In this document: positions 1 through 10,010 of the stretch, piece by piece
Layout of the letters: each line of letters starts with the position of its first letter
How positions within the stretch are numbered: the first letter of the stretch is position 1
NCBI GenBank assembly: GCA_934700265.1
Contig: CAKUXH010000023.1
Location: forward strand, 1-11,967
Source: an uncultured Opitutales bacterium
GTDB taxonomy: Bacteria > Verrucomicrobiota > Verrucomicrobiia > Opitutales > UBA9783
Direction: 5' to 3'
DNA length: 11,967 nt
Notes under the pieces: model-generated
The model's input: the letters and a program-made list of their open reading frames with translations, nothing else
Database searches by the model: none
What the model was told of the DNA's origin: nothing
Made by a program: the position numbers and the translations under genes

Positions 1-2319
1 ACCCTTACTCTTCACCCGCTCTTGAACTTTTTTAATTTCAAGCTCCACAATCGACAACATATGCTCACGATTTAATGAACGAAATAAAATAATTTCGCCA
101 ATACGATTTAAAAATTCTGGTTGAAATGCAGCCTTTACAGCAGCATCTACATTACTTTTTAGCTGTTCAAATGCCAACGACTCAGAAACAATTCCAAAAC
201 CTAAACCACAACTTTTTTGTAACGACTGTGCACCAACATTAGAAGTCATAATGATAATCGTATTTTTAAAATCAACGCACCTTCCCAAGCTATCCGTCAA
301 GCGACCTTCTTCCAAAACTTGCAATAAAATTTGAATAACATCTGGGTGAGCTTTTTCAATCTCATCGAACAAAACAATAGAATATGGCTTTCGACGAACA
401 GCTTCAGTTAGCTGTCCTCCATCTTCATGACCAATATACCCTGGAGGTGCACCAATCAAACGAGCAACTGTATGTTTTTCCATATACTCTGACATATCAA
501 TTTGAATGATCGCATCACGATTACCAAAAATTTGTTCAGCCAAAACTTTTACAAGATAAGTTTTACCAACACCGGTAGGGCCTAGAAACAAGAACGAACC
601 CATAGGGCGATTAGGATCTTTTAAGTCTACACGTGAACGTTTTAACGCACGTGCAACCATTCGCACTGCCTCATCTTGACCTATCACTGCTTTACTTAAA
701 ATTTTATCCAAATTTAAGTAGCGTTGCATTTCTTGTACCCCCATACGCTCTATTGGAATTCCAGTCCAATCAAATACAATACGCTGTAGAGTTTCCTCTC
801 GAACATTTGCTTTTTTAGAACGATTCTTTGTTTTCCAAGCTTCAATAACTTCTGAACGTTCTTTGCTCAAAACTTGCTCTTCATCTCTCCAACGAGCAGC
901 TTCTTCAAACTTTTGAGCATTTATTGCTTTTATTTTCTTCGTCTTTACTAGCTGTATTGCTTTATCAAAAGATTCTGTAGAAGGAACAGCTCCTATACTT
1001 AAAATCTTTGTTCGGGCTCCAGCCTCATCCAATAAATCAATCGCTTTGTCTGGGAATACACGATTTGTAACATAACGCTGAGTTAAATTAACCGACTGTT
1101 TCAAAATGTTTTCTGAATAGTGTACATTATGAAAGCCTTCATAACGTGGGCGTAAACCTTCCAAAATTTTCAATGTATCCGATAACGAAGGTTGATCTAC
1201 TAAGATAGATTGAAACCTACGATTTAATGCCATATCTTTTTCTATATACTTACGGTACTCATCTAAAGTTGTAGCGCCAATACACTGTAATTGACCACGA
1301 GCTAATGCAGGTTTTAAAATATTCGAAGCATCCATAGAACCTTCAGCAGATCCAGCTCCCACAATAGTATGCAACTCATCTAAAAATAAAATAATGTTTG
1401 AAGATTGAACTTCATCCATCAAACGCTTTAATCGCTCTTCAAATTGCCCTCTATACTTGGTTCCTGACAATAATAAAGCTAAATCTAAGCTAAAAATAAC
1501 TTTGTCCAACAACATTTCAGGTACCATCCCTTTTGCAATTCTTTGTGCTAGGCCTTCAACAACAGCTGTCTTACCAACTCCAGCTTCACCAATTAAAACA
1601 GGATTATTTTTTGTACGACGACATAAAATTTGAATCAATCGGTCAATCTCTTTATTTCGACCAATAACAGGATCCAATTCATTTTTCTGTGCCTTTAATG
1701 TTAGATTTTGCCCAAAACTTTTTAAAACTGATCCTTGGTTTGGACTACCATGATTTTGTTTTTCCCAATCATCTTCTTCTAAATCATCATCACCAAAAAA
1801 CGAACTATCATCACTAAAAACATCATCATCCCCTTGATTAATATCATCATTTCCATTATCGGGAGTTAATTCTGACAAAATCTCACGACGACATTCCTTA
1901 GGATCTATATCTAATGTTTTTAGCAATCTCGCTCCTAAACCTTTACCTTCTTCTAACAATCCCAATAAAAGATGCTCTGTACCAATATACGTATGCCTTA
2001 ATTCTTTCGATTTTTCTTCAGCCAATTGAAGTACTTTATGAACTCTTGGAGTCATAGGAATATCCGTAGAATTACAATCTTGTTGAACCCAACCTTCACT
2101 TTCATTTTTACCTGAAGCAATATGATGTTCCAAAGCATCATGAACAGTGTCAACATCTAATCCCATACGTTGCAAAACACGAACAGCAATCCCTTGCCGA
2201 GCTTCTAAAAGACTTAACAACAAATGATCTGTACCTAAATATTTTTGTTGAAATTTTAAAACAAGCCTTTTAGCTAAAACAAAAACCTGCTGAGCCTTTG
2301 GTGTTAAATTATGAAACAT
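1..2319 (-). CDS. clpC: ClpC-type AAA+ unfoldase, ATPase subunit of Clp protease (3' end cut by window edge)
   Basis: Cytosolic AAA+ chaperone that unfolds substrates and feeds them to ClpP. The frame is open for 773 codons from ATG 2319 to the window edge; relatives have about 810-850 residues, so only the C-terminal end is missing. Two Clp N-domain repeats are visible (about residues 3-60 and 88-145, with GTDH at 30-32 and GTEH at 114-116), then an acidic linker (about 154-185). NBD1 has Walker A GEAGVGKT (244-251) and Walker B LDE with Asp314/Glu315. A UVR-like middle segment lies at about 463-488. NBD2 has Walker A GPTGVGKT (580-587), Walker B FDE (Asp652/Glu653), and sensor TSN. The LGF tripeptide near 706-708 fits the ClpP-docking loop, and LNR supplies an arginine finger. 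The UVR segment and short middle domain favour ClpC over ClpA or ClpB. The start overlaps the end of mcsB by 11 bases and has a strong ribosome-binding site. Confidence 0.96.
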
Positions 2320-3415
2320 AAGCCCCTCCCTTAGTTTCTATCGAGCAAAAATCTTCATTTCTTATAAAAAACTTCCGTACAACATCTGCACGTACCTGTT
2401 TTTCTTCTTCAATTTTTAACTCCTTATTTAAAAATTGCTGCAAATTTTCTGTAGGCATACATGCCCATAATTTCATTAAAGCAGAACATTTTTTATTCGA
2501 TAAAGCTCCCAAATCCATTGCCATAATAATAATGGAAATTAAGTTCATACCTTCTTCGAAAGAAAGCTCGTAACAATTTCGTAAAACCCCTAAAGAACGT
2601 CCAACACTATCCTTTATAAAATTTCTATTATCCGAAATTAACTGTTTACGGATAAGCTTTTCTCGTGTTATAATTGCTTGAGTTGCTTCTTCAATATGAT
2701 TCAACAAAAGCTCCTCATTACAACCTATACTTGTAACATTCGTAACAAAAAATAAATGCCCTAGAATCCTATCTTCAATTTTCGCATAGGGCTCCAACTT
2801 CAAAGACATTGCTTCTAATCCTGCTACAATTTGCCCTAATTGCTGTTTATAACAAATAGCAGGTATATGAATCAATGAAAATCCCTTTATACCTGTTCCT
2901 AACGTATCTGTAGAACATGTACTGTATCCTCTTTCAGGATCAAAACTATACACTAAATTTTCTTCTAATTGAGAATCTAAAATATCTAATTTTCGCCATA
3001 AAGATCTCAAATGCAAATTTAAAGCAATTCCTTGCAGTCGTATGTGATCACAATCATTTATTATAATAAATAAATTTTGTGCTTTTAAGTAAACAAGTAC
3101 TGTTTCATCTGTAGGATTTTCCAAAAAACATACATGCAAAAGTAATTTTCTCTCTTCAGCATTACAACTTTTCCAGTTCAAGATCAGCCCATCATTATCA
3201 AAATTAGGTAAAACTTGACAAGCCTTGATAACGGCTTGAGAAATTTGAATTTTTTGATTTTCACACGCTTGACAAGAAAAAGGGAAATCAGCAAGGTTCC
3301 TCGAAATACGGACACCATTAAGCTTTTCATCCAGCTTCTTACCAAAACCAGATAGCTTTTCCCATAATTCATGTACCTCTTGTCTTACGTTACTCATAAT
3401 ACTTTTGTTACGCAT
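2309..3415 (-). CDS. mcsB: McsB-like protein-arginine kinase homologue, active site degraded
   Basis: Homologue of the guanidino-phosphotransferase McsB, which in Firmicutes phosphorylates arginines to mark proteins for ClpCP. Counting from ATG 3415 (368 residues), family landmarks are RISRN (36-40), DHIRLQ (123-128), GYSTCSTDTLGTG (163-175), HIPAI (183-187), a TN..SIG segment (225-231), GRSLGVLRN (272-280) and RADVVR near the C-terminus. Key motifs are altered. The NEED loop reads NDCD (120-123), so the catalytic Glu is Cys. The active-site Cys is one position early (Cys167, with Ser168 in its place). The first Arg of the SSRxR motif is Gly34, and the RG..GE segment is missing. It may be a pseudoenzyme or regulatory partner. 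The start is uncertain: ATG 3397 is a good alternative and TTG 3442 is in frame. It overlaps clpC by 11 bases; no mcsA lies beside it. Confidence 0.85.
   Translation of the reverse strand: MRNKSIMSNVRQEVHELWEKLSGFGKKLDEKLNGVRISRNLADFPFSCQACENQKIQISQAVIKACQVLPNFDNDGLILNWKSCNAEERKLLLHVCFLENPTDETVLVYLKAQNLFIIINDCDHIRLQGIALNLHLRSLWRKLDILDSQLEENLVYSFDPERGYSTCSTDTLGTGIKGFSLIHIPAICYKQQLGQIVAGLEAMSLKLEPYAKIEDRILGHLFFVTNVTSIGCNEELLLNHIEEATQAIITREKLIRKQLISDNRNFIKDSVGRSLGVLRNCYELSFEEGMNLISIIIMAMDLGALSNKKCSALMKLWACMPTENLQQFLNKELKIEEEKQVRADVVRKFFIRNEDFCSIETKGGAYVS
2325..2329 (-). promoter_or_regulatory. Ribosome-binding site of clpC
   Basis: On the minus strand GGAGG, inside the G-rich run GGGAGGGG, lies 5 bases before the clpC ATG at 2319. 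It sits inside the last codons of the mcsB-like gene. It is the clearest Shine-Dalgarno sequence I noticed in this A+T-rich window. It supports ATG 2319 as the start and suggests that clpC is translated efficiently and independently of its upstream neighbour. Confidence 0.75.
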
Positions 3416-3498: not shown

Positions 3499-4743
3499 TT
3501 ATTTTAAAACTGTGGATTCCTTTAAATTAGCCTCTAACTTTTCAGGCAAAACCACACCTATATTTTTTTTTGAAAAAGCATTTAATTTTTTAGCTGCAGG
3601 CAACAAACGACTTTCTAAAGATCCTAATACTTGATTGTAACTTTCCATAGTTTTTTGCAAATTCTTACGTAAATCTTGAAAATAATCTCCAAAAACAAGC
3701 ATTCGATCATATAATTCTCCCCCTAATTTCTCAATGGCTTTTACTTCCTCAAGCATTTTATTTTGACGCCATCCATAATGAATCGATTTTAATAAAGTAA
3801 TCAAAGTCGTTGGTGTGGCAAAAACAACATTGTTTCGACACCCATACTCAATTAAAGCACTATCCACTTGTAAAGCATGACTAAAAAGCCATTCACCTGG
3901 AAAAAACAAAACAACAAAATCGGCAGATTTTTCAAAAAAAGAACCATAATTCTTTGCACTTAATTTAGAAACCAAATCTCGTATTCGTTGACAACAGTTC
4001 TTTAAAATCTTTTGTTGCTCTCCTTCAGATTTATTCTCTCGTATCGCAGACAAATAATCTTCTAATTGCGGTGTTTTTGCATCTACAATTACACAACGAT
4101 CATTGGGTAAATGAATAACCATATCAGGGCGCAAACTTCCTTCTTGGACAGAAGTTTGAACATTAAAATCAACATACTCTAACATCCCTGCCATTTCAAC
4201 AATACGACGCAATTGTAATTCCCCCCAACGACCTCGGTAATTTGGGTTACAAAAAGCATGCGTTAATAAATCTGTCTTGTTTTCCAATTTTAATTGAACT
4301 TGATTTAATTGCTGTAGTTGTTCTTTAAAAGCAACATCTGTCTTTTGCCTTCCAAGTTCCAACTGCTCAACACGGCTCGAAAACTGTTCCAAATTTGTTT
4401 TTAAAGGTTCTATTATTTTTTCCAAAACAATACGCTGATTGTTTACTATATTCCTAGAATTTTCTTGATAATGCTTTAAGCCATTTTCTGCCAGCTGAAC
4501 AAAATTTTGAGCATTTTCCTTAAATAATTCTAAAGAAGCTGCTTTAAATTGTTGTGTCAAACGCTCATCCAACCCTGAAAGCTGTTGTTTACAATTATCT
4601 GCAATAACCTTTTCTGCTGCCAATTGTGCACACAATTGTACATTTTCATCTCTTAACGTATCAAACTTATCGGCCTTCTTTAGCTTCTCCCTAAAAAGAA
4701 GCCAAGCAAAAAAGAAACCGCAAATAACTCCAACAATAATCAT
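3499..4743 (-). CDS. rmuC: RmuC family DNA recombination protein
   Basis: RmuC proteins limit inversion and rearrangement at short repeats; the core resembles PD-(D/E)xK nucleases, though the biochemical role is poorly settled. The 414 residues begin with a membrane anchor (about 2-17: hydrophobic, ending before FREK), followed by a long polar, coiled-coil-like segment (about 20-160) rich in Gln, Glu, Lys and Leu. The family core follows, with GRWGE (171-175), RPD (205-207) and VDAK (220-223); Glu175, Asp207, Asp221 and Lys223 are the likely nuclease-like residues. A further family stretch, FFPGEW, lies at 280-285. Length and order match normal RmuC. The ATG at 4743 comes 3 bases after the ftsY stop codon, so translation is probably coupled. 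Nothing suggests decay. Confidence 0.94.
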   Translation of the reverse strand: MIIVGVICGFFFAWLLFREKLKKADKFDTLRDENVQLCAQLAAEKVIADNCKQQLSGLDERLTQQFKAASLELFKENAQNFVQLAENGLKHYQENSRNIVNNQRIVLEKIIEPLKTNLEQFSSRVEQLELGRQKTDVAFKEQLQQLNQVQLKLENKTDLLTHAFCNPNYRGRWGELQLRRIVEMAGMLEYVDFNVQTSVQEGSLRPDMVIHLPNDRCVIVDAKTPQLEDYLSAIRENKSEGEQQKILKNCCQRIRDLVSKLSAKNYGSFFEKSADFVVLFFPGEWLFSHALQVDSALIEYGCRNNVVFATPTTLITLLKSIHYGWRQNKMLEEVKAIEKLGGELYDRMLVFGDYFQDLRKNLQKTMESYNQVLGSLESRLLPAAKKLNAFSKKNIGVVLPEKLEANLKESTVLK

Positions 4744-6997: not shown

Positions 6998-7911
6998 ACT
7001 AAAAATCGTCCTCGCACTCCTTCAATCAATCGTACTAACAATTTTTCAAATGTAATTCCTACACATGCTGCACTTTTAGGAAACAAACTTTGACTGGTCA
7101 TTCCAGGAATCGTATTCATTTCCAAAAACCAAACATTTCCATTGGGCTCCAAAATAAAATCAGCACGACCAAAATCTAGGCACTCTGCTTGTTTAAAAAA
7201 CTTAGCTGCTATATTTTGTAATCTTATAAGCACATCTTCCTTAATAGGCGCTGGAAACAAATATTCACAAGCTCCTATAGTATATTTATTTTTAAAATCG
7301 TAGAAACCATGCTTTGGACGAATCTCAACAGCACCTAAAGCTTCTCCTTGTAAAACTCCTACCGTTAGTTCTCTGCCACGAACAAAACGTTCTATCATCC
7401 AATTACCTACGCAGATTTTATCCCAAACATTTTGTAAAACTTCAAAATTTTCACACAAATGAACACCGATACTGCTACCTTTATTAATAGGCTTTAAAAC
7501 AAAACTACTACCTCCTAAGGTTTCGATATATGCCTTATCTAAAGGATCTCCTGCTTCTAACATAATTCCAGGCAAAACTGGCAAATTACTCTTCAAAGCT
7601 ACCTGTTTACTTTTCATCTTATCGATGCATAGAACACTTGCCTTTGAGTCACTTCCTAAATAAGCAAAATTTCTATGCTCTAACAGCAATTGCAATTGCC
7701 CATCCTCACCAAAATCACCATGAATAAGCGGAAAGATTAAATCTGTATCTGGATTCAACCCTTCAGGCAACTTATTTTCATCTAAACGAATAAGTTTGGT
7801 CGGATATAATTCCTTTAACACATCAAAAACAGGTTCAGCTGATTTTATCGAAACATCACGTTCTCCGCTTTGGCCACCACACAAAATAACAACATTTCTT
7901 AAATTCTTCAT
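6994..7911 (-). CDS. ddl: D-alanine--D-alanine ligase
   Basis: ATP-grasp enzyme that joins two D-alanines for the peptidoglycan stem peptide. The 305 residues from ATG 7911 contain all family motifs: GGQSGERDVS (12-21, Glu17 for substrate), HGDFGEDG (64-71), the ATP-grasp lysine in VLKP (138-141) followed by KGSSIG (144-149), the tyrosine-bearing GFYDFKNKY (202-210), and the metal site DF...E.N (Asp251, Glu264, Asn266) leading into TIPGMT. I chose ATG 7911 over GTG 7926 because it gives a 4-base ATGA overlap with murC-murB, the same arrangement used at the neighbouring junctions, and the protein then begins just before the first strand, as in relatives. It looks fully active. Confidence 0.96.
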   Translation of the reverse strand: MKNLRNVVILCGGQSGERDVSIKSAEPVFDVLKELYPTKLIRLDENKLPEGLNPDTDLIFPLIHGDFGEDGQLQLLLEHRNFAYLGSDSKASVLCIDKMKSKQVALKSNLPVLPGIMLEAGDPLDKAYIETLGGSSFVLKPINKGSSIGVHLCENFEVLQNVWDKICVGNWMIERFVRGRELTVGVLQGEALGAVEIRPKHGFYDFKNKYTIGACEYLFPAPIKEDVLIRLQNIAAKFFKQAECLDFGRADFILEPNGNVWFLEMNTIPGMTSQSLFPKSAACVGITFEKLLVRLIEGVRGRFLV

Positions 7912-10010
7912 AAAATTTGTTCCCACTCTTTCCCTAACAATCTCACCTCTGGTTCTAATACAATTCCTGTCTTTTCTTTCACACGATTTCTTATAATACT
8001 AACTAATTTTAGCACATCATTATAAGTACCACCACCTTTATTTACAATAAAATTTGCATGTTTAGAGGATACAAAAATATCTCCTACATGGATATCCTTT
8101 AACCCCAACTGGTCTATGAGTTTTCCAGCAGAACCCAACATCGTATTTTTAAAAAAACAACCTAAGCTAGCTCCCTGAGGTTGACTTAAACATCGCTTCG
8201 ACTTTAAAAGGTTTCGCAAACTTTTTATTTTTTCTGGAGAAGATAATTCCCCTTGTAAAACAGCATCTAAAATAACACAATTTTTTAAAGTATCACAACA
8301 ACGATAACCATAATGAAGATCTTGACGTTTAATCAAATGATGTTTCCCAGAAAAATCAATTATATTGATCTCTAACATACGATCTAAAATACCTATCCCT
8401 TGAGTACCTGCATTCATCGATAAAGCTCCTCCTAAAGTACCCGGAATACCATCTAAAAACTCAAACCCACCAATCCCTTTTTCCTCCATTAGATTGAGAA
8501 ATTGACTTAAAACAAGACCTGCTCCTACTTTATAAATATACGCATCTTTCTTCTGAACCTGGTTCCAACAATCACCTTTTAATCTAATAACAACTCCTGG
8601 GTATTCTTCATCAGGAATAAGTAAATTTGAACCTCCACCTAAAACTGACATATTTAACCCCAGAGAATTACAAGTAAATATAAGCTGCTGTAACTCTTCT
8701 ATATTTTTTGGGCAAGCAAGTCCCAATGCACTACCCCCAACCATTATCAATGAAACATGCTTAAGATTGTAATGGAATGAGACATTAACACCATTATCTC
8801 TTAATTTCGCACAAATTTCCTGTTTTAACTGTGCTACCCAAGCTCTGGCTTTACAATCCACATTACCAGCACCTGCAAATATAATTGTTACTGGAGATTT
8901 TAAAACAACATTTGAAGGAATAAAATCTTCTACCTTCAATTGCTCAAACGTAAATGCATTTGGTAAAACTGTCTTCAAGCTTTTAACAGAAGATTTTTCA
9001 TGTTCAAACGCCTCATAAATCGGGCACAAATATAAATTTTCTACAGGTTTTAACACACGAATAAAATCTTCAAAATATTGATTTAATCGTGAAGCTCTAT
9101 GGGGCTCAAACACAAGATGAAATGAAGAATTTACATCAAAATTATCAAGCAATGCTCTCAATTCGCTAGGATGATGCGCATAATCGGATAGAATGGTCAA
9201 ATACTTAGTTTTTAATAAAATTTCTTGACGACGTTTAATCCCTGGAAAAGTTTTTATAGCATTTTTATCAAATTTCTGTTGTGTTAACAGTTCAAAAGCT
9301 TTACATGCAAAAATTTCGTCTTGATTTAATCCATTAAAAGATTCATCTACTCGTTTATAGACAGCATGATCATCTCTAAAATTTTCATTAGTCAAAACTA
9401 TTTTTTTCGTTCTCCGAACCAATCGATTAAAGGTATTACGATAAGCCGCTATTGTTTTATAATACGCAGGATGATCCCAATCTGTGTTTAAAATTAACGA
9501 AATGTCCGGTGAAAACAAATCGATCGTACCATCACTTTCATCTAATTCTAACAAGGTCCATTCTGCTTCTTTTTGATAAGAAGCTGCAGCATAAAAATCT
9601 TTCTGAAATTCTGCACCTAATAAATAATTAACAGGAATATTATGGTATTTAAAAAAATGAATTAAATAAGCCGTTGTTGTCGATTTTCCATGACTTCCAC
9701 AAACAACACACAACTTTTCTTTACTTAATAATTCTGCAATAAATTCCCCACGCAAGTAGCATTGACAATGATTTTGTGCAGATTTAAAAATAGGATGTTG
9801 AATACTGATAGCACTTGAACGCACACAAATAGAACACTCTTCTGGAATTTTTTCTGTCCACTTAATGTAATTTAATTGATTACGACGTTCTTCTGATGCA
9901 TAATCATCCCACCCTAGAACGAAATATCCCTTATCATATAAATATTTCGCTAGTGAGGCCATTCCCATACCACCTGCCCCAAGCAAATAAATTTTCTTCA
10001 GATTTTTCAT
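7908..10010 (-). CDS. murC/murB: MurC-MurB fusion: UDP-MurNAc--L-alanine ligase / UDP-GlcNAc-enolpyruvate reductase
   Basis: A single 700-residue frame with two consecutive peptidoglycan enzymes. MurB reduces UDP-GlcNAc-enolpyruvate to UDP-MurNAc, and MurC then adds L-alanine. MurC part (about 1-395): GAGGMG (11-16), P-loop GSHGKSTTT (105-113), ELDESDGT (155-162), NTDWDH (175-180), RRQE (260-263), SDYAHHP (275-281) and PHRASR (303-308). It is compact, and the HNxxN motif is reduced to LNQDE near 228-232. MurB part (about 396-700): VGG (424-426), GGGSNLL (458-464), GIPGTLGG (521-528), YGYR with Arg570, GCFFKN with Cys618 where Ser is usual in E. coli, and EPEVR with Glu688. The three MurB active-site positions are therefore Arg, Cys and Glu. 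The frame is continuous, with no stop at the junction. It overlaps tsaD and ddl by 4 bases each. Confidence 0.95.
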   Translation of the reverse strand: MKNLKKIYLLGAGGMGMASLAKYLYDKGYFVLGWDDYASEERRNQLNYIKWTEKIPEECSICVRSSAISIQHPIFKSAQNHCQCYLRGEFIAELLSKEKLCVVCGSHGKSTTTAYLIHFFKYHNIPVNYLLGAEFQKDFYAAASYQKEAEWTLLELDESDGTIDLFSPDISLILNTDWDHPAYYKTIAAYRNTFNRLVRRTKKIVLTNENFRDDHAVYKRVDESFNGLNQDEIFACKAFELLTQQKFDKNAIKTFPGIKRRQEILLKTKYLTILSDYAHHPSELRALLDNFDVNSSFHLVFEPHRASRLNQYFEDFIRVLKPVENLYLCPIYEAFEHEKSSVKSLKTVLPNAFTFEQLKVEDFIPSNVVLKSPVTIIFAGAGNVDCKARAWVAQLKQEICAKLRDNGVNVSFHYNLKHVSLIMVGGSALGLACPKNIEELQQLIFTCNSLGLNMSVLGGGSNLLIPDEEYPGVVIRLKGDCWNQVQKKDAYIYKVGAGLVLSQFLNLMEEKGIGGFEFLDGIPGTLGGALSMNAGTQGIGILDRMLEINIIDFSGKHHLIKRQDLHYGYRCCDTLKNCVILDAVLQGELSSPEKIKSLRNLLKSKRCLSQPQGASLGCFFKNTMLGSAGKLIDQLGLKDIHVGDIFVSSKHANFIVNKGGGTYNDVLKLVSIIRNRVKEKTGIVLEPEVRLLGKEWEQIL

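What the first reader, a model, noticed from the sequence alone, without database searches (positions are those of the whole stretch)
2309..3415. McsB-like protein with eroded catalytic motifs: a probable pseudokinase kept beside clpC
Seen: the NEED loop reads NDCD (3047-3058), putting Cys where the catalytic Glu stands; in the CP(T/S)N loop (2891-2929) Cys167 sits one position before the expected site, which is Ser; the first Arg of SSRxR is Gly; the RG..GE stretch is missing; the Arg of the RLG segment is gone. Known: these residues bind ATP or the guanidinium in phosphagen kinases and McsB. No mcsA lies next to it, although McsA activates McsB in Firmicutes. Yet the frame is intact and coupled to clpC. 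Inference: it may no longer phosphorylate arginine and may serve as a ClpC adaptor, or it may use a rearranged active site.
Basis: partly seen in the sequence, partly recalled or inferred. Interest (0 to 1): 0.7.

Follow-up and report, generated by a model that had tools for sequence, protein, structure and literature searches.

The report
Kinase-dead McsB kept beside clpC
A bacterial enzyme that normally tags damaged proteins for destruction seems to have lost its catalytic residues in this lineage, yet the gene is preserved beside the protease gene it serves, which suggests a second, non-enzymatic job worth testing.

The parts
2309..3415 (-). mcsB-like gene (pseudo-McsB, 368 aa; likely start at inner ATG 3397)
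3047..3058 (-). NEED loop reads N-D-C-D (E120->D, E121->C)
2891..2929 (-). C167 loop reads GYSTCSTDTLGTG; the C167 position is Ser
2924..2944 (-). FDPERGY, equivalent of the loop gripped by the McsA zinc finger in S. aureus McsB (Y147-Y153); F, D, P, G in 26 of 26 clade members, last residue Y in 24 and F in 2
2777..2779 (-). Ile213 at the position of catalytic E212 (RG..GE stretch reads EPYAKI)
2510..2632 (-). C-terminal (dimerisation) domain stretch 262-302, more conserved in this clade than in canonical McsB
2399..2404 (-). Glu338-Lys339 at the positions of the pArg receptor residues R337/D338
2309..2319 (-). 11-nt overlap ATGTTTCATAA: mcsB codons ..YVS* and clpC MFHN
1..2319 (-). clpC, first 773 codons (runs off the window)
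2227..2229 (-). ClpC Asp31 at the position of pArg2-site Glu32
1975..1977 (-). ClpC Glu115 at the position of pArg1-site Glu106 (kept)
3499..4743 (-). rmuC, upstream neighbour, also beside mcsB in L001, L035 and L036

Best explanation
It is a McsB that has lost protein-arginine kinase activity (a pseudokinase) and is kept under selection as a structural partner of the ClpC protease. The likely mechanism: made by coupled translation with ClpC, it dimerises through its C-terminal domain, still binds the McsA zinc finger through the FDPxxGY loop, and brings McsA and/or substrates to ClpC without phosphorylating them; ClpC in turn may depend less on phospho-arginine because its pArg pockets are eroding. 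Strongly inferred from sequence: loss of catalytic chemistry, selection on the protein, co-absence of the YwlE-type phosphatase, retention of McsA in most relatives and of the clpC overlap. Inferred only: binding to ClpC, binding to McsA, dimerisation, substrate delivery.
For: E121, C167 and E212 absent in 26 of 26 sequences of the window clade (26 rows include two partial ones and two copies of G001's gene). The canonical class was defined by having these three, but its 89 rows also keep E120, the His and all five arginines, 89 of 89. Window clade one group, SH-aLRT 100; sister to G004/G008 with intact motifs, SH-aLRT 89 (quick tree). dN/dS 0.070-0.125 for 5 of 6 degenerate pairs, 0.328 for one (two of the six have dS over 1); canonical 0.058-0.120 in 3 unsaturated of 5 pairs. 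Thr-type LMW phosphatase in 0 of 21 degenerate, 21 of 25 canonical; any LMW phosphatase 1 of 21 against 24 of 25. Of 20 small-genome controls picked by McsB score, 3 lacked the phosphatase; two of these (G081, G178) then proved eroded, the third (G186) canonical. McsA in 17 of 21 degenerate genomes, all 17 with four Cys/His ligands in each zinc finger. G001 and G003 also lack the gene that follows mcsA's neighbour in G002 and G005, so their lack of mcsA may be an assembly gap. McsA-contact loop nearly invariant in the clade. Overlap with clpC 11 nt in 9 of 9 loci. Conservation rises in the C-terminal domain. ClpC E32->D in 6 of 20 degenerate rows (window included), 0 of 36 canonical (G030 read; G012 and G016 called canonical by score only).
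Against: In B. subtilis the adaptor role of McsB needs its kinase activity (PMC5506225, passages), so a dead kinase would not be expected to work as an adaptor in the same way. No direct evidence of ClpC or McsA binding. In other degenerate groups the gene was not found beside clpC (G042 and G034, separate contigs). ClpC pArg glutamates are both kept in 14 of 20 degenerate rows. On the ClpC tree only 4 supported independent contrasts exist, so the phosphatase link cannot reach significance once relatedness is allowed for (3-4 of 4 the same way, 0 the other way). G186 has a canonical McsB and no LMW phosphatase found. mcsA was not found in G001, G003, G042, G138. No McsB match in 24 of 372 genomes of the order (drafts may be incomplete), so it may be dispensable in some.
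Confidence: 0.64

Rival explanations
1. It still phosphorylates arginine through a rearranged active site that uses the protein's own Cys167 and another acidic residue.
For: A cysteine sits one place before the usual site and D121/D123 remain acidic; the fold is intact.
Against: The shifted Cys occurs in 9 of 26 clade members; E212's position is I/V/L/T/S/A/D and R207's is acidic in 23 of 26; no YwlE-type phosphatase in 21 of 21 degenerate genomes.
Confidence: 0.06
2. It is a decaying remnant on the way to loss in shrinking genomes, with no present function.
For: All 21 eroded forms read in the order sit in assemblies of 1.6 Mb or less; some small genomes show no match; one pair has dN/dS 0.33.
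Against: dN/dS 0.07-0.13 in 5 of 6 pairs, like ClpC (0.07-0.14 in the 4 degenerate pairs tested); open frames of normal length in deep clades; retained C-terminal domain, McsA loop and clpC overlap.
Confidence: 0.13
3. It is a nucleotide- or ligand-sensing regulator (or a new enzyme) that works apart from pArg, for example gating ClpC in response to ATP.
For: Second Arg of SRxR kept in 20 and Arg of NEEDHxR in 23 of 26 clade members; group B keeps SRxR and GTGLR, and the Treponema-like rows shown keep SRxR and DHxR.
Against: Three of five phosphate arginines are replaced in the window protein; in the clade R176 is D, K, S, N or V and R207 is E, D, T or L. I did not search for a new conserved polar cluster beyond listing conserved residues.
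Confidence: 0.12

Closest known systems
McsB protein-arginine kinase (Geobacillus/Bacillus 6fh1, 6tv6; S. aureus 8gqd)
   Different: No E121, C167, E212; first SRxR Arg, R176, R207 and pArg receptor R337/D338 replaced; no YwlE-type phosphatase found in relatives' genomes
Canonical McsB of sister Verrucomicrobiota G004/G008
   Same: Same 11-nt overlap with clpC, mcsA at the same trxB-like locus, R337 and D338 already replaced
   Different: Catalytic residues intact; YwlE-type phosphatase present beside a clpB-like gene
Treponema-like McsB homologues (L002, P0021-P0140)
   Same: E121 and C167 absent in 120 of 120, E212 in 119 of 120; in T. saccharophilum an mcsA-mcsB-clpC order
   Different: Another phylum; SRxR, DHxR and GSGMK mostly kept in the rows shown, so may still bind nucleotide; phosphatase not tested
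Phosphagen kinases (arginine and creatine kinase)
   Different: Small-molecule kinases with intact catalytic residues (recalled)
Chlamydia trachomatis McsB (CT675)
   Same: Kept with McsA and ClpC in an intracellular bacterium (PMC10128030, PMC11708050, passages)
   Different: mcsAB operon apart from clpC; motifs not compared here; the passages seen report no activity test of chlamydial McsB

Membership tests
McsB protein-arginine kinase (as an enzyme) | Catalytic E120/E121, C167, E212 | tested here: not met
   D, C, S, I in the window
McsB protein-arginine kinase (as an enzyme) | Arginines that bind the ATP phosphates (two of SRxR, NEEDHxR, GTGLR, RG..GE) | tested here: not met
   2 of 5 kept in the window, one further is Lys; their role is recalled from arginine kinase
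McsB protein-arginine kinase (as an enzyme) | NCBIfam equivalog score cut-off | tested here: not met
   best of five models 189.7 bits against 385
McsB family (by descent) | Full-length McsB fold with C-terminal domain | tested here: met
McsB family (by descent) | Phylogenetic place among McsB | tested here: met
   Clade SH-aLRT 100, sister to canonical G004/G008 at 89
McsB family (by descent) | pArg receptor site R337/D338 | tested here: not met
   E/K in the window; also replaced in canonical G004/G008
ClpC adaptor | Genetic link to clpC | tested here: met
   11-nt overlap, 9 of 9 loci of the clade and its sister; not seen in G042 and G034
ClpC adaptor | Binds ClpC and delivers substrate | not testable with these tools
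   needs purified proteins
McsA-McsB complex | McsA with intact zinc finger in the same genome | tested here: inconclusive
   17 of 21 degenerate relatives have it; the window's own genome is not held
pArg signalling system | Arginine phosphatase YwlE (Thr in the P-loop) | tested here: inconclusive
   0 of 21 degenerate relatives have it; the window's own genome is not held

The most novel reading that the evidence does not exclude
The whole phospho-arginine degradation system has been rebuilt, several times independently in small-genome Verrucomicrobiota and again in Treponema, into a phosphorylation-free one: kinase chemistry, arginine phosphatase and ClpC pArg pockets are lost together, while a dead McsB-McsA pair is kept to feed or gate ClpC.
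Probability: 0.42. Interest if true: 0.8.

Novelty: new variant of a known kind. Interest (0 to 1): 0.67.

Why it matters
In B. subtilis the kinase and adaptor roles of McsB have been hard to separate because adaptor function needs kinase activity (PMC5506225, passages seen). Natural McsB proteins without catalytic residues, selected for beside clpC and in genomes that mostly keep McsA, would separate the two roles and show what McsB does besides phosphorylate. The co-absence of the YwlE-type phosphatase also offers a genome-based guess at which bacteria use protein arginine phosphorylation. Searches for 'McsB'+'pseudokinase' (6 papers, 5 listed), 'McsB'+'Verrucomicrobi' (2), 'McsB'+'Treponema' (1) and a five-term search with 'catalytically inactive' (35 papers, 12 listed) listed no paper whose title or shown start of abstract describes such proteins; most papers of subscription journals are not in that library.

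Tried and rejected
A broken or chance reading frame: rejected (7e-13 for the open frame; 19 homologues with the same erosion). A second, intact McsB in the same genome: one PF00217 match in each of the 49 matching genomes, G001 among them. The conserved C-terminal 'YVS' as a functional tail: rejected, it is the overlap with clpC's first codons; G003/G005 and G006/G009 keep the overlap length with other residues. Absence of mcsA: rejected as a general statement; it lies on another contig in 9 of the 17 degenerate genomes that have it and directly beside mcsB in 8. The lack in G001 and G003 goes with absence of the pssA-like gene of that locus; G042 and G138 are unexplained. Chlamydial McsB motifs were not compared. 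The first genome-contig scan and the viral scan found no relative. The canonical class was set by the catalytic motifs, so '89 of 89' for those three residues is by definition. The drop of conservation in the catalytic loops partly restates the finding. Partial sequences L153, L155, L156, L158, L159 (five genomes, not classed) and repeats L100, L117, L123 were left out; P0018, L038, P0017 were left out of its conservation table (23 of 26 rows). LMW phosphatase was tested in 47 genomes: 21 degenerate, 25 canonical, and G007, which has no McsB match and is left out. Of 372 genomes of the order, motifs were read only for those fetched. ClpC of G118 and G178 was not compared (G118 gave no match at 1e-110; G178 was not searched). 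For G364 a second, partial LMW match was not read.

Full report

What is missing. Aligned with Geobacillus McsB, the window protein has D for E120, C for E121, S for C167, I for E212, G for the first Arg of SRxR, K for the Arg of GTGLR, E for the Arg of RG..GE and E/K for the pArg receptor pair R337/D338 (receptor site: PMC8370763, passages). All reader coordinates hold. The sequences read fall into two classes: 89 rows keep E121, C167 and E212, and these same 89 also keep E120, the His and all five arginines; 41 rows lack C167 and E212, and all but two of them E121. No full-length row lost only one of the three. In the window clade 26 of 26 lack all three (rows include two partial ones and two copies of G001's gene).

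Where it occurs. A scan of genomes from 84,980 species with two short peptide patterns found two relatives: L001, Verrucomicrobia bacterium UBA1183 (41% identity), and Treponema saccharophilum. L001 has the same order nusB-ftsY-rmuC-mcsB-clpC. The genome of the window is not held, so its phylum is inferred from L001 and the ClpC tree. Of 50 genomes (L001's and its relatives), 49 have exactly one PF00217 gene; of 372 genomes of its order, 348 have a McsB match. Reading the fetched sequences gave 21 genomes with eroded McsB: window group G001, 2, 3, 5, 6, 9; group B G042, 107, 118, 129, 138, 164; group C G034, 51, 65, 79; and G081, 178, 93, 155, 88. G093 and G155 still have E121. All 21 assemblies are 1.6 Mb or less. 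On the McsB tree (quick method) the window clade is one group (SH-aLRT 100) next to G004/G008 with intact motifs (89). On a ClpC tree of 56 rows the eroded state needs 6 changes, at least 4 forced by well-supported branches; G088 and G155 are long branches whose place is unsure. Separately, 120 of 120 listed homologues of the Treponema protein lack E121 and C167 and 119 of 120 lack E212 (166 passed the threshold, the best 120 were listed).

Not decay. dN/dS is 0.125, 0.106, 0.070, 0.085 and 0.107 in five degenerate pairs and 0.328 in the sixth (G079/G051); two of the six have dS over 1, where the estimate is rough. Canonical pairs give 0.120, 0.068 and 0.058; two more were saturated. ClpC of the four degenerate pairs tested gives 0.07-0.14. 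The stop of mcsB and the start of clpC overlap by 11 nt in 9 of 9 loci of the clade and its sister although the residues differ. In B. subtilis coupled translation is said to lead to strong McsB-ClpC interaction (PMC5506225, passage).

The rest of the pathway. A low-molecular-weight phosphatase domain (PF01451) is found in 1 of 21 degenerate and 24 of 25 canonical genomes tested (Fisher p 8e-11, relatedness ignored). The P-loop of YwlE type (CxGNTCRS) occurs in 0 of 21 against 21 of 25 (p 2e-9); the single degenerate hit, G088, reads CLGNICRS. The exceptions among canonical genomes: in G186 none was found (nor a ClpC at the 1e-110 threshold), and G025, G044 and G364 are Ile-type. Of 20 small-genome controls picked by McsB score, 3 lacked the phosphatase; G081 and G178 then turned out eroded (INGGDH, SRPCS, YGDS), G186 did not. 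With relatedness allowed for, only 4 supported contrasts exist, 3-4 in the same direction and none opposite, too few for significance. ClpC's two pArg-site glutamates (PMC12583610, passages) are both kept in 36 of 36 canonical ClpC rows but in 14 of 20 degenerate ones, with E32->D in the window, G001, G003, G005, G006, G009 and E106->A in G006, G009 (G030 read; G012 and G016 counted as canonical by score alone). In S. aureus ClpC, E32A/E106A relieves repression (same passages), so pocket erosion could make ClpC less dependent on pArg; this is inference.

What is kept. McsA, sought with a profile of 18 genes next to canonical mcsB, is found in 17 of 21 degenerate genomes, each with four Cys/His ligands in both zinc fingers: on another contig in 9, beside mcsB in 8. 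In the window's group it lies between a thioredoxin-reductase-like gene and a small gene, as in canonical G004/G008. G001 and G003, without mcsA, also lack the pssA-like gene of that locus; G042 and G138 lack mcsA unexplained. In S. aureus the McsA zinc finger grips McsB residues Y147-Y153 (PMC12467219, passage); the equivalent FDPxxGY is F, D, P and G in 26 of 26 of the window clade, against F 74, D 18, P 32 of 89 in canonical McsB. Between canonical rows and 23 rows of the clade, the mean share of the commonest residue falls in the NEED and E212 loops (0.93 to 0.69 and 0.81 to 0.58) and rises in residues 262-302 of the dimerisation domain (0.62 to 0.74).

Conclusion. Loss of kinase function is strongly supported by sequence, by the co-absence of the phosphatase and by the shift in conservation. 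That the protein acts as a McsA-bound, ClpC-linked adaptor or scaffold is the best remaining reading, at about two in three. It goes against what is known of B. subtilis McsB, whose adaptor role needs kinase activity, and in G042 and G034 the gene was not found beside clpC, so the claim needs the bench tests listed.

Noticed in passing
L002:7776-9014 (Treponema saccharophilum) and P0021-P0140: A large family of Treponema-like McsB homologues without E121 and C167; of the few that carry a name, 15 are 'hypothetical protein' and 3 'protein arginine kinase' (one carries both). In T. saccharophilum it lies between an mcsA-like gene and clpC.
   Followed up: partly
L001:6617-7087, also L034, L041, L042: The gene after clpC in L001 encodes a CesT-family (type III secretion chaperone) protein; similar frames follow clpC in L034, L041, L042, which suggests a host-associated life.
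   Followed up: partly
window 7908-10010: One 700-aa frame holds a MurC-like half (by my reading) and a MurB half (Pfam), next to ddl.
   Followed up: partly
G004:C6 and G008:C10: In the intact sister genomes the YwlE-type phosphatase lies beside a clpB-like match; the six window-type genomes show no second ClpC/ClpB-like match at 1e-50.
   Followed up: partly
L039, L151, L154, L157 (G034, G065, G079, G051): An extreme group whose McsB has lost every catalytic motif (GG.HH and the like) yet keeps mcsA directly upstream.
   Followed up: partly
L041, L042 (G004, G008): These McsB keep all catalytic residues but have lost R337 and D338 of the pArg receptor and have mcsA at another locus: a possible first step before loss of catalysis.
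   Followed up: partly
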